This document shows, in pieces, positions 25,309-30,848 of a DNA stretch of 64,000 nucleotides. Made by a program: the position numbers and the translations under genes. The DNA is from Thozetella sp. PMI_491 (Eukaryota > Ascomycota > Sordariomycetes > Chaetosphaeriales > Chaetosphaeriaceae). Under the pieces are notes generated by a model that saw only the letters and a program-made list of their open reading frames with translations, searched no databases and was not told the DNA's origin. The stretch lies in NCBI GenBank assembly GCA_021432635.1, contig MU270107.1, positions 62,001 through 126,000 on the forward strand, read 5' to 3'. Each line of letters opens with the position of its first letter. The stretch's first letter is position 1.

Positions 25309-26018
25309 TTGGTATTTCGCCTGTAATGTGCTCGGCAAATATTCTGCCCAGTCCCGACGGCACGAATGAAGAAGGCCTTAGGCTGGTGTGGCTGTCGTCT
25401 CTGTCTCGCATTTCTCCTTCTTCCTGACGCGAAATTGATTTTTTCGTTCCAGGCTGCTCGGGTATGTCTCGTGGGTGCTCCTGGTGCTCCTCCTTCGTCG
25501 CGCATTTTCCTCTTTCGCGATGGTACGTAATAACTTGAACAGGGCCGATACTTCTCAACTCAAAGCCGAAATCATAGGTTGGTAGTTTTAATGTCGGTTG
25601 GATGGAAATCCTAGCACTCACCTACCTGGCCCCTGGAAAGTAACACCCAGCCTGGCCCCGATCGGTACCCAACAGTCACCCAGACGCAGCTTTCCCACGG
25701 CTGGGGCGCTCTGTAATTGTGGTGACGAACTGCGCCCCGCCCGGTTCCTCACTTCCTTCGAGACTCTACGATGCTACATGCTCGATGAGCACTTCAACTT
25801 AATTCTACACCGACGCCATCATCTACGACCATCGCCCTGCCGAAAGAAGAAAATATTGCTGCGCCGATTTTGCGCCGCTTTCGTTACTTCCGGGAACCCC
25901 TTCCAAGAGGAGGCAACTTGCTAGGCCAGACATATAAGAATATCAACCTTAACCTAGCAACTGCCCACGCGCTCGCTTCCCTTCGATAGTTCCATGCCAG
26001 CTTTGAAAGAAAAAAAAA

Positions 26019-26933
26019 ATGCGACCCAGCTCTCGAAAGATCACCGCGGCGTGGGCGGCGCTTGCCCTCTCCCCTGCGGCCGCAGCCCGGGCAGTAGAAG
26101 TTGCTCCTAGGGACCTCAACTTTTCGCTGCCCGACGCCCTCCTCCACTCCCCCCTGGTCGGCAAACCGGCCAACGATTTCAACTGCAAGTCGGTCCACAA
26201 TCCCATTGTCATGCTGCACATGCTTGGGGCGAACGACCAGATCGATCTGAACCAGCTTCAGTATAAGCTCAACGGCCTCGGTTTCTGCACCTTTTCCAAG
26301 ACTTATGGCGCCCATTCCCTCGCGCCTTGGATCGGCGGCGTCGTGCCGATGGTCGACTCGGCTAAGGAGGTGGCGAGTTTCATTAAGGAGGTGAAGGCGA
26401 AAACCGGCGCGGCAAAGGTCGACCTCGTCGGGCACAGCGAAGGCGCCGCCATGACGCTGTACGTGCCGCTCACCCAGCCAGGGATCTCGGACATGATCGA
26501 GCGCGTCGTTGCCCTCGCTCCCGCCGTGCACGGCGCCAAATATTTCGGGCTTACCGACCTAGCCTACCTAGGCGGAGAGCTTACACGCCAGATCGCCGCC
26601 GATATCCTGGATGTCCTCGGATGTGAGGCTTGCGATGATCTCGCGACTGGGGGACGGGTGTATAATGACTTTGTGGCTGCGGGAGCGCACATTGCTAACC
26701 CAGCCATCAAGACGTCTATCATCATGTCCGCCTCAGACACGTTGGTCACACCAGATGTGAGCAGGGTCGACGAGCCTGGCGCGAGGAACCTGCTAGTGCA
26801 GAATTATTGCCCAGCCGACAAGGTGGGACACACTGGCCTGGCATATGATACAGGCGTCTGGGAGATGGTGGTCAATGAGCTCACAGAAAACTACAATGGT
26901 TCGGTGGCGTGCACACAGGGTCTTGGCATCTGA
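26019..26933 (+). CDS. Secreted class-2 (PF01674-type) lipase/esterase, 304 aa
   Basis: Intronless, with ATG at 26019 directly after a run of A. The N-terminus (basic, then a hydrophobic Ala/Leu stretch ending near AAAARA, residue about 24) is a signal peptide, so the enzyme is probably secreted. The alpha/beta-hydrolase nucleophile elbow is GHSEG with Ser140; the likely acid is Asp240 (SASDTLVTP) and the base His271 (DKVGHTGL). The oxyanion region is HNPIVMLHMLGAN. Four Cys late and early in the chain could form disulfides, and NGS/NFS offer glycosylation sites. This family, common in actinobacteria and present in fungi, hydrolyses triglycerides or other esters. The gene is head-on to the MDR oxidoreductase downstream, with only 176 bp between stops. 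Exact substrate unknown. Confidence 0.88.
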   Translation: MRPSSRKITAAWAALALSPAAAARAVEVAPRDLNFSLPDALLHSPLVGKPANDFNCKSVHNPIVMLHMLGANDQIDLNQLQYKLNGLGFCTFSKTYGAHSLAPWIGGVVPMVDSAKEVASFIKEVKAKTGAAKVDLVGHSEGAAMTLYVPLTQPGISDMIERVVALAPAVHGAKYFGLTDLAYLGGELTRQIAADILDVLGCEACDDLATGGRVYNDFVAAGAHIANPAIKTSIIMSASDTLVTPDVSRVDEPGARNLLVQNYCPADKVGHTGLAYDTGVWEMVVNELTENYNGSVACTQGLGI

Positions 26934-28895: not shown

Positions 28896-30848
28896 CTACA
28901 CTTGGCCGTCAAAGACTTGATGCAGGGTTGCAACCAAAGGCACTGAAGGGTTCCAGTGCAGATCCGCGCAGGTGTTGCGGATCGTCGGGACTCGATCCTG
29001 CATGTCCTGGTATCCAAGGCCGTAATATTCTGCGCCCGCGATGTCCACGAGCTTCACTTTAGAGCTTGCGCGGGAAATACCGGGACGCGCGGCAGCGATC
29101 TCCAGCATCCCGGCCGCCAGGTCCCGGATCGAGCACCGGTTGGCCGGGTTGCCGATGTTGTATATCTTGCCGCTCGCCACGCCGTCGGGATTCTCAATGA
29201 TCTTCATCAGCGCATCGACACCGTCCTCAACGTCGGCGAAACAGCGACTTTGGGCGCCCCCGTCCACTAGCATGAGATCCTCTCCGCGGGTGATGTGTCC
29301 GAGAAACTGGGTTACTACCCGGGAGCTGCCCGGCTCCGAGTTCTCCGGGTCGTCGAGTCCACTGCCGATCCAGTTGAACGGCCGGAATAGCGTGAAGTCC
29401 AGGCCCTCATTTCCGTAGCCCCAAATCACGCGGTCCAGTAGCTGCTTGGAGCACGAGTAGATCCAACGTGTCTTGTGGATGGGGCCACAAACCAGCTCCG
29501 ACGCCTCGGGGTCGAGTTCAGGATCATGGCACATTCCATACACCTCGGAGGTGGACGGGAAGATGAGCCGCTTTCTATGCTCCGCTGCCATGCGCACAAT
29601 TCGCAGGTTAGCCTCGAAATCCAGTTCGAACACAGACAGCGGCTCTTTGACGTAGGAAGACGGTATCGCGATGGCCACTAGGGGTAGAATGACATCAGCG
29701 ACCTTGACGTACTCCTCCACCCACTCCGTCTCCGCCGCTATGTTTCCACGCTTGAACACGACTCGATCACGGTACTTCAGTTCATCCATGACCTGTGTGA
29801 TGCGGTCGTTGTTTAGGTCCATGCCGACGACATTCCAGTCCGTGGTTGCCAGGATCCGGCCGAGAAGATGGTGGCCGATGAAGCCGTTGATGCCGAGAAT
29901 CAGAATCGTCTTGGTGAGAGCCGCGTGGCCTGAAGTAGACTGTAAGACGAGATCTAGGTCGCCTGCGGAAATAGGCTTGCTGCCTTCGAGCAGTTCGTGG
30001 ATAACGACAGCTCCGTGGTCGCCGCAGACCCCGATAATCTCGTCTTCTAGTACAGAAAGCCCGGGGTGCATGCCAGGGAGACGCATATCTGACAATCGTG
30101 CTCGTCCTATGATGAACTTATGGCCATTGATTGCTGTCCAGGCGCCGGGATATGGCGGCGCCAGGGCCCTATGCAGGTTGTATACGGTTTCTGCCGGCTG
30201 TGACCAGTCAATGCGCCCGTCATCGGGCCACCGGCCGGCGAAGGGGTTGTCCTGCGAGGGAGCATTGGGGCGTGCCGGGAAACACCCCGACACTAGCGAT
30301 GGGAACGCCGTGCTGAGCATCTGTGCCGCGGCTGCGGGCATCTTCCCTCGAACATCAAATGCGGTGTCATCAGGGAGGGTTTGTAGTTTGGATTGCGCGA
30401 CAATGTCACCCTTGCCTGGCTCTGCTGTCAACTTGTGAAGAGTAACGCCCGTCTCGGTGTCTCCGTGCAAGACGACCCTGTTCACCGGGTACTGGCCACT
30501 GTACTTGGGCAGCAGAGAGCACTGAATGTTATAGGCGCCTTTTTGGGCCCGATCGAGGAGTTCCCCAGGGAGGGTGCGACAATAGGAGAAGCTAAAGATG
30601 AAGTCTGGACGCAGACCCTCGAGCGTCGAGAAAACACCCGAGTCGGGAGAGCTACTCGGCGCGATGTGTGCAATTCTATTTTCTTTGCAGAACGCCCCGA
30701 CCGATTTGGACTGCTCTCCATCTGGCGAGGGGTCCGGGTGGGTGACGACAAGGAGAATGCGGCACTGGTGGGCAAGCAGCGCCTCGAGGCAGCTGACGCC
30801 GACGTCACCGCAGGCGAACACAGCTGCAGTCGAAGGAATGATGGCCAT
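28896..30848 (-). CDS. arnA: ArnA-like fusion: degenerate formyltransferase + UDP-glucuronate decarboxylase, 650 aa
   Basis: Intronless; ATG at 30848. The full bacterial ArnA layout is present at the usual length (E. coli ArnA 660 aa). The N-terminal half (about 1-305) aligns with the UDP-L-Ara4N formyltransferase: LRPDFIFSFSYC, SLLPKYSGQYPVN and GDTETGVTLHKL. However, the catalytic His of the NLHGSLLP motif is Gln109 (reads NIQCSLLP), and the catalytic Asp (E. coli D140) aligns with Gly145, so this half is probably inactive. The C-terminal half (about 314-650) is an SDR: GINGFIG NAD-binding loop (319-325), FPSTSEVYG with Thr433/Ser434/Glu435, Tyr464-x3-Lys468, RPFNWIG and Arg619, matching the residues used for oxidative decarboxylation of UDP-glucuronate. 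The expected product is a UDP-4-keto-pentose or, after re-reduction, a UDP-pentose. No lipid A pathway is expected in a fungus; origin by transfer from bacteria is an inference. Confidence 0.92.
   Translation of the reverse strand: MAIIPSTAAVFACGDVGVSCLEALLAHQCRILLVVTHPDPSPDGEQSKSVGAFCKENRIAHIAPSSSPDSGVFSTLEGLRPDFIFSFSYCRTLPGELLDRAQKGAYNIQCSLLPKYSGQYPVNRVVLHGDTETGVTLHKLTAEPGKGDIVAQSKLQTLPDDTAFDVRGKMPAAAAQMLSTAFPSLVSGCFPARPNAPSQDNPFAGRWPDDGRIDWSQPAETVYNLHRALAPPYPGAWTAINGHKFIIGRARLSDMRLPGMHPGLSVLEDEIIGVCGDHGAVVIHELLEGSKPISAGDLDLVLQSTSGHAALTKTILILGINGFIGHHLLGRILATTDWNVVGMDLNNDRITQVMDELKYRDRVVFKRGNIAAETEWVEEYVKVADVILPLVAIAIPSSYVKEPLSVFELDFEANLRIVRMAAEHRKRLIFPSTSEVYGMCHDPELDPEASELVCGPIHKTRWIYSCSKQLLDRVIWGYGNEGLDFTLFRPFNWIGSGLDDPENSEPGSSRVVTQFLGHITRGEDLMLVDGGAQSRCFADVEDGVDALMKIIENPDGVASGKIYNIGNPANRCSIRDLAAGMLEIAAARPGISRASSKVKLVDIAGAEYYGLGYQDMQDRVPTIRNTCADLHWNPSVPLVATLHQVFDGQV

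What the first reader, a model, noticed from the sequence alone, without database searches (positions are those of the whole stretch)
28896..30848. Complete ArnA-type fusion enzyme encoded in a fungal genome
Seen: one intronless 650-residue frame has both ArnA halves in the bacterial order, with long stretches recognisable against E. coli ArnA in each half (FELDFE-type, STSEVYG, RPFNW and IRN blocks). Known: ArnA belongs to bacterial lipid A modification with 4-amino-arabinose, which fungi lack. Inference: horizontal acquisition from bacteria and reuse in fungal nucleotide-sugar metabolism, for instance making a UDP-pentose for glycans or natural products. I am not sure how widely such genes are already annotated in ascomycetes.
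Basis: partly seen in the sequence, partly recalled or inferred. Interest (0 to 1): 0.8.

Follow-up and report, generated by a model that had tools for sequence, protein, structure and literature searches.

The report
Fungal ArnA-like fusion with decayed half
A filamentous fungus carries a sugar-nucleotide enzyme that apparently arose from two neighbouring bacterial genes joined into one, and in this species one of the two enzyme halves has lost its catalytic residues while the other half still looks intact.

Summary
The 650-codon ORF at 28896-30848 is real but on the minus strand. It encodes an ArnA-like formyltransferase (FT) plus UDP-glucuronate decarboxylase (DH) fusion; the source matches Thozetella sp. 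PMI_491 (Sordariomycetes).

In trees of each half, the fungal-clade sequences found (14 FT, 17 DH) form one clade. FT is nearest Oxalobacteraceae-type betaproteobacteria; DH is compatible, its exact sister unresolved. Grouping with the mostly gammaproteobacterial fused ArnA is rejected (AU p 0.0008, 0.00004). All 12 Oxalobacteraceae loci read have two separate neighbouring genes, so the fungal fusion is most likely independent. A 2025 paper calls this fusion absent from eukaryotes.

The FT half changed 19 of 66 otherwise invariant positions, the DH half 1 of 78. A second fungal-clade copy decayed, apparently independently; 12 of the 14 copies with an FT half keep its residues.

Most likely function: UDP-glucuronate oxidative decarboxylase (UDP-4-keto-pentose, perhaps UDP-xylose) with a dead FT domain. 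A UDP-glucose dehydrogenase was found in this genome; a convincing ArnB was not, nor a UDP-xylose synthase in a partial check. No biochemistry was done.

The parts
28896..30848 (-). Single-exon ArnA-like gene, 650 codons plus stop
   Evidence: ORF; one match in its genome; 98% to P0001 Thozetella sp. PMI_491
29955..30848 (-). Formyltransferase-like (FT) half, about residues 1-298; fold predicted to be kept, catalytic residues lost
   Evidence: Pfam PF00551/PF02911; block pLDDT 53-94; PDB 2bln/1yrw matches, TMt 0.89
30522..30524 (-). Codon 109: Gln where the FT catalytic His (E. coli H104) stands
   Evidence: H in 188 of 188 non-fungal rows that have a residue there
30414..30416 (-). Codon 145: Gly where the FT catalytic Asp (E. 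coli D140) stands
   Evidence: D in 189 of 189 non-fungal rows
29913..29954 (-). Linker, about residues 299-312, roughly where Oxalobacteraceae have the stop codon and intergenic spacer (inferred)
   Evidence: junctions compared by eye; residues 304-311 have pLDDT under 50; limits approximate
28899..29912 (-). UDP-glucuronate 4-oxidase/decarboxylase (DH) half, residues 313-650; active-site residues kept
   Evidence: PRK11908 511 bits, cut-off 294; 64-65% to named betaproteobacterial single-domain enzymes; eight DH positions examined, all kept
29544..29549 (-). DH Ser434-Glu435 (E. coli S433-E434)
29445..29459 (-). DH Tyr464 ... Lys468 (E. coli Y463, K467)
30676..30711 (-). 36-nt GT...AG stretch that the public Thozetella protein P0001 lacks; probably a false intron in that record's model
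   Evidence: P0001 lacks exactly 12 residues; frame open, block aligned with the other fungi

Best explanation
A fungus of the Sordariomycetes took up a piece of a betaproteobacterial arn operon holding the adjacent formyltransferase and decarboxylase genes. The stop between them was lost, giving one gene (shown: phylogeny and gene layout; inferred: order of events and donor identity). The fused gene was kept in scattered Sordariomycetes. In the Thozetella lineage, and apparently separately in a second lineage, the FT half lost its catalytic residues and evolved fast while the DH half stayed constrained (shown). The protein here should therefore be a single-activity enzyme: NAD+-dependent C4 oxidation and C6 decarboxylation of UDP-glucuronate to UDP-4-keto-pentose, possibly with some UDP-xylose (inferred from family and intact residues). 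The dead FT domain may persist because, in a fused gene, a stop or frameshift there would also destroy the DH half (inferred).
For: Both half-trees put all fungal rows in one clade (FT 14 rows 98/98, DH 17 rows 100/100), inside Oxalobacteraceae/Burkholderiales sets. Fungi plus five fused ArnA (E. coli, Pseudomonas, Arsenophonus, Pantoea, Azonexus) as one clade is rejected (p 0.000788 and 3.71e-5). Of 80 loci, 50 are split and 30 fused; 12 of 12 Oxalobacteraceae are split. The split pairs lie among arn genes: ArnC in 48, ArnD 46, ArnB 43, ArnT 38 of 50. The fungal FT tail (GVCGDG....IHELL..G..VS...L) resembles that of Noviherbaspirillum, not gamma ArnA (by eye). FT decay: catalytic residues; 19/66 FT against 1/78 DH invariant positions changed; FT branch 1.15 against 0.05-0.45 in nine intact fungi, FT/DH ratio 2.57 (5-95% 2.0-3.4) against 0.63-1.25. 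UDP-glucose dehydrogenase-type gene present.
Against: No biochemistry, no expression data. One DH position otherwise invariant is changed (T395I). The FT/DH ratio alone is not diagnostic: eight bacteria with FT residues intact have 2.4-17, because their DH is very conserved; and one intact fungus with a short branch, P0009, has a resampling range of 0.40-6.08. Two unnamed bacterial sequences (P0004, P0005) are already fused, so a fused donor is not excluded. The exact bacterial sister of the DH half is unresolved, and the fungi are simply one side of a branch. Herbaspirillum (L026), also Oxalobacteraceae, lacks the shared FT tail. Five gamma-labelled loci are also split. Fungus-to-fungus transfer was not tested.
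Confidence: 0.72

Rival explanations
1. The donor bacterium already had the two genes fused; the fungus received a fused gene.
For: P0004 and P0005 (unnamed ena contigs) are fused Oxalobacteraceae-like proteins, so this stop is lost in bacteria too.
Against: In both half-trees P0004 and P0005 lie inside the Janthinobacterium/Duganella/Rugamonas group, not beside the fungi, and keep the second gene's start Met. The 12 Oxalobacteraceae loci read are all split, though that is a small, capped sample.
Confidence: 0.2
2. A true ArnA: the fungal fusion shares ancestry with the gammaproteobacterial fused ArnA.
For: Same domain order, similar linker length (E. coli 86, window 78 codons between anchors), about 40% identity.
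Against: AU tests reject it in both halves; the FT tail is unlike gamma ArnA.
Confidence: 0.03
3. The FT-like half has a new role, such as ligand binding or regulation of the DH half, rather than being a relic.
For: The ORF is intact and the fold is predicted, with 49-50% identity to Noviherbaspirillum kept.
Against: Changes fall on 19 of 66 otherwise invariant FT positions, as relaxed constraint would give; a 2025 ArnA structure paper describes a DH-driven hexamer (PMC12650200, passages seen), so FT need not hold the assembly together.
Confidence: 0.2
4. Bacterial contamination of the assembly.
For: Bacterial-type intronless gene.
Against: Fungal gene families on both sides; orthologs in four other named fungi on contigs of 2.3 to 9.3 Mb; fungal clade distinct from the bacteria sampled.
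Confidence: 0.01

Closest known systems
ArnA (PmrI) of E. coli and other Gammaproteobacteria
   Same: FT then DH on one chain, DH active-site residues, predicted folds of both halves
   Different: Not the same fusion by phylogeny; FT catalytic His and Asp missing; below the ArnA equivalog cut-off; no arn genes recognised among the flanking ORFs scanned; the host has no lipid A (general knowledge)
[quoted passage not shown] RsU4kpxs of Ralstonia)
   Same: Closest sequences among named bacteria (DH 64-65%; whole 56%); same gene order
   Different: Two genes there, one here; FT residues kept there
Plant UDP-apiose/UDP-xylose synthase (AXS)
   Same: Related decarboxylase fold (6h0n, about 35%)
   Different: Lower score (212 bits, against 455 for PbgP3 and about 342 for the ArnA DH domain); AXS-specific cysteines recalled, not tested

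Membership tests
ArnA (bifunctional, NCBIfam PRK08125.1) | Score over the equivalog cut-off | tested here: not met
   609 against 777 bits; E. coli 1260; intact F. graminearum copy 700, also under
ArnA (bifunctional, NCBIfam PRK08125.1) | FT catalytic Asn, His, Asp (roles recalled, not from a call) | tested here: not met
   N kept, H to Q, D to G
ArnA (bifunctional, NCBIfam PRK08125.1) | DH residues Y398, T432, S433, E434, Y463, K467, R510, R619 (roles recalled) | tested here: met
   all eight kept in the window protein
ArnA (bifunctional, NCBIfam PRK08125.1) | Common ancestry of the fusion | tested here: not met
   AU p 0.000788 (FT) and 3.71e-5 (DH)
ArnA (bifunctional, NCBIfam PRK08125.1) | Partner ArnB aminotransferase in the same genome | tested here: inconclusive
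   only a distant DegT-like ORF, 31% over 159 aa; the search is exon by exon
[quoted passage not shown]
   511 against 294 bits; but E. coli ArnA also passes with 504, so the model does not separate the two
[quoted passage not shown]
   needs an enzyme assay

The most novel reading that the evidence does not exclude
The fungi whose copies keep the formyltransferase residues (12 of the 14 fungal-clade copies with an FT half) run an ArnA-like two-step chemistry and make an N-formylated 4-amino-4-deoxy-pentose nucleotide, a sugar so far tied to bacterial lipid A. Thozetella and a second lineage have dropped that branch and use only the UDP-pentose step. This would be a eukaryotic 4-amino-arabinose pathway built by operon capture, independent gene fusion and later repeated loss of one activity.
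Probability: 0.25. Interest if true: 0.85.

Novelty: new variant of a known kind. Interest (0 to 1): 0.6.

Why it matters
A 2025 survey that included 648 eukaryotic species reported the DH-FT fusion as bacterial-specific and absent from eukaryotes (PMC12650200, passages read). Here it is in fungi, and not by transfer of gammaproteobacterial ArnA but most likely by a separate fusion of the same two genes. The fungal clade also offers natural comparisons: copies with FT residues intact, copies where FT has decayed beside a constrained DH half, and possibly copies with DH alone. It points to an unrecognised UDP-pentose (and perhaps amino-pentose) branch in Sordariomycete nucleotide-sugar metabolism.

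Tried and rejected
Contamination: rejected. Biosynthetic cluster: of ten window ORFs scanned, those nearest the gene match a zinc-type alcohol dehydrogenase, a metallo-beta-lactamase-fold protein, NmrA and HET, or nothing (26007-26933); no sugar or arn gene was recognised, but other ORFs and split exons were not scanned. ArnB: the DegT-like ORF on C21 is too distant; the C93:20510 hit is a 676-aa ORF that I read as 5-aminolevulinate synthase-like, by recall; the other three matches were not followed. ArnC: two weak matches, 25-30%. UDP-xylose synthase: PF16363 gave 43 matches and 12 loci; seven ORFs were followed and none read as UXS (L098 RmlB, L100 and L106 GalE, over cut-offs; L099, L102-L104 other types, under cut-offs, and for L100 and L098). 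L105, L108 and the 31 matches without a locus were not followed, so absence is not proved. Linker length as proof of origin: dropped, since E. coli's is similar. Gene neighbours in other fungi: no tool used here gave them.

Literature: judged from listings, searches showed no paper on a fungal ArnA; capped lists were 12 of 13 shown; 12 of 25. I opened passages of PMC3916237 and PMC12168206 (the word hit was an author named Arnaud), PMC10516422 (bacterial arn genes only), PMC3220709, PMC5607165 and PMC12650200. One search found no paper for the FT residue numbers; the roles are recalled. PMC3220709 lists one fungal protein closest to the plant UAXS model, unnamed in what I saw.

Limits: hit lists show the best 120 of 6275, 7999 and 2573, so fungal copies are a lower bound; six of the 14 copies with an FT half come from unnamed sources and are called fungal by their place in the trees, and P0013 is cut at its C end. 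One search used 11 fungal rows (P0013 left out, Madurella not yet known) and 8 bacteria on a topology that I fixed, the placing of window and P0002 beside P0006 being arbitrary, with 40 column resamplings. One search used 9 intact fungi and 28 bacterial rows; its left-out controls include near-sisters P0009 and P0011. The AU test of window plus P0014 (p 0.0175) was run after a quick tree had been seen.

Full report
Observation. The window belongs to a 72.3 Mb, 157-contig genome. The frame at 28896-30848 is open for 650 codons on the minus strand. It carries Formyl_trans_N, Formyl_trans_C and Epimerase domains in ArnA order and aligns nearly end to end with E. coli ArnA (1z7e, residues 9-647, E 3e-148). 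The best database hit is Thozetella sp. PMI_491, 98% (P0001); Thozetella is in Sordariomycetes, Chaetosphaeriales. P0001 lacks 12 residues that equal a 36-nt GT..AG stretch in an aligned block, probably a false intron. GC3 of the gene (0.69) is like that of eight other ORFs of the window (0.56-0.76).

Setting. Ten window ORFs were scanned and eight have Pfam matches, among them DNA ligase IV, CrcB, HET, FDF/YjeF_N and Nha1. One match in the genome. Named orthologs: Fusarium graminearum, Cladobotryum mycophilum, two Gaeumannomyces, Aphanocladium album and two Madurella. Six names were looked up and all are Sordariomycetes. Six unnamed proteins (P0002, P0006, P0007, P0010, P0013, P0014) fall in the same clade. 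The hit lists are capped at 120, so more may exist.

Origin. A capped scan of bacterial genomes kept the best 80 of 590 loci, closest Noviherbaspirillum autotrophicum (56%), then Oxalobacteraceae and allies. Of the 80, 50 are split into two neighbouring genes, in the same frame in all 50, and 30 are fused. The fused ones are 28 gammaproteobacteria, Azonexus and one unassigned bin; five gamma-labelled loci are split; 12 of 12 Oxalobacteraceae are split. The split pairs lie among arn genes: ArnC in 48, ArnD 46, ArnB 43, ArnT 38 of 50, some contigs being short. The DH half alone is 64-65% identical to single-domain enzymes of Duganella, Herbaspirillum and kin. Trees of each half (76 and 85 rows; 36 and 39 rows) give one fungal clade (14 of 14 rows in FT, 98/98; 17 of 17 in DH, 100/100). 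In some searches it lies inside sets of Oxalobacteraceae/Burkholderiales rows (36 rows at 98, 38 rows at 96; the second also holds Gallionellaceae). In the DH tree, drawn from the midpoint, the fungi are one side of a branch and the bacterial sister is not resolved. Holding the fungi with five fused ArnA rows is rejected in both halves (p 0.000788 and 3.71e-05). By eye, the C-terminal tail of the fungal FT half resembles that of Noviherbaspirillum up to its stop codon and not the tail of the gamma ArnA rows; Herbaspirillum L026 differs. I infer capture of two adjacent genes and an independent fusion. A fused donor is not excluded: two unnamed bacterial sequences (P0004, P0005) are fused, but they group with Janthinobacterium, Duganella and Rugamonas.

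Decay of one half. At the positions of E. coli ArnA N102, H104 and D140 (catalytic roles recalled), 188 of 188, 188 of 188 and 189 of 189 non-fungal rows with a residue agree; one of the 189 rows, P0018, is gapped at two of them. Of 12 distinct fungal rows, 10 keep all three; the window has N, Q, G and P0014 has S, Q, S. Both Madurella proteins keep the motifs, so 12 of 14. Eight DH positions were examined: seven are kept by every fungal row with a residue there (R619 gapped in partial P0013), and Y398 is F in the F. graminearum protein. Of 66 FT columns invariant in 37 reference rows the window changed 19 and P0014 28; of 78 DH columns each changed 1. Nine intact fungi, left out in turn, changed 0-3 FT and 1-7 DH columns. 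FT terminal branches: window 1.15, P0014 1.13, nine intact fungi 0.05-0.45, eight bacteria 0.13-0.47. FT/DH ratios: window 2.57 (2.0-3.4), P0014 2.92 (2.2-3.7), nine intact fungi 0.63-1.25; eight of these have upper limits up to 1.62, and P0009, with a very short branch, has 0.40-6.08. On the DH half, window and P0014 as a clade are rejected at p 0.0175, so the losses look independent. Three further fungal-clade entries hold only the DH half (P0240 Fusarium pseudograminearum, unnamed P0244 and P0268); whether these are losses or gene-model errors is unknown.

The FT decay is not general. In the nine intact fungi the FT half evolves at about the rate of the DH half, whereas in the eight bacteria it evolves 2.4-17 times faster. 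The ratio alone is therefore no mark of decay; the invariant positions and the absolute FT branch are. It also suggests that FT is under selection in most of these fungi, which is evidence for the bold reading; the missing partner aminotransferase could not be looked for in those genomes.

Mechanism. The DH half keeps the catalytic residues examined. The AlphaFold model (mean pLDDT 83, pTM 0.54) matches full ArnA chains at TM about 0.5 with rmsd near 18, so the relative placement of the halves is not reliable; single halves match well (PbgP3 and ArnA DH TMt about 0.88, ArnA FT 0.89). A UDP-glucose dehydrogenase-type gene is present. No convincing ArnB was found, and no UDP-xylose synthase among the seven ORFs followed. 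The likely reaction is UDP-glucuronate to UDP-4-keto-pentose; that ArnA and RsU4kpxs can also give UDP-xylose is stated in PMC5607165 (passages seen). What the fungus does with the product is unknown.

Known and new. PMC12650200 (2025; passages read) reports 39 DH-TF fusions among 1299 species, all in Pseudomonadota, with complete absence in eukaryotes. The fungal fusion is contrary to that statement; which 648 eukaryotes it used I could not see. Protein databases already label some fungal entries ArnA, so the gene is annotated, but my searches (judged mainly from listings) showed no paper that discusses it.

Noticed in passing
own genome G000:C7:1190672-1191631 (L098:1414-2640, minus): Open 409-aa frame of bacterial dTDP-glucose 4,6-dehydratase (RmlB) type, 508 bits on TIGR01181 (cut-off 365): a second bacterial-looking sugar-nucleotide gene in this fungus. 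No tree was made.
   Followed up: partly
own genome G000:C21:95233-95682 (L003:850-2229, minus): 459-aa DegT/DnrJ/EryC1-like ORF, distantly related to ArnB (31% over 159 aa), far below the ArnB cut-off (60 against 631 bits).
   Followed up: partly
P0240, P0244, P0268: Fungal-clade DH-only proteins; P0240 and P0268 begin inside the linker of the F. graminearum protein, P0244 groups with the FT-decayed P0014: FT half perhaps lost outright, or gene-model errors.
   Followed up: partly
P0004, P0005 (unnamed ena contigs): Oxalobacteraceae-like FT-DH fusions that keep the second gene's start Met: apparently a further fusion by stop loss.
   Followed up: partly
P0241, P0243 (Madurella): Madurella copies keep the FT motifs but have insertions in the DH half (771 and 764 aa).
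   Followed up: no
window 30676-30711: 36-nt stretch probably mis-annotated as an intron in the public Thozetella protein.
   Followed up: partly
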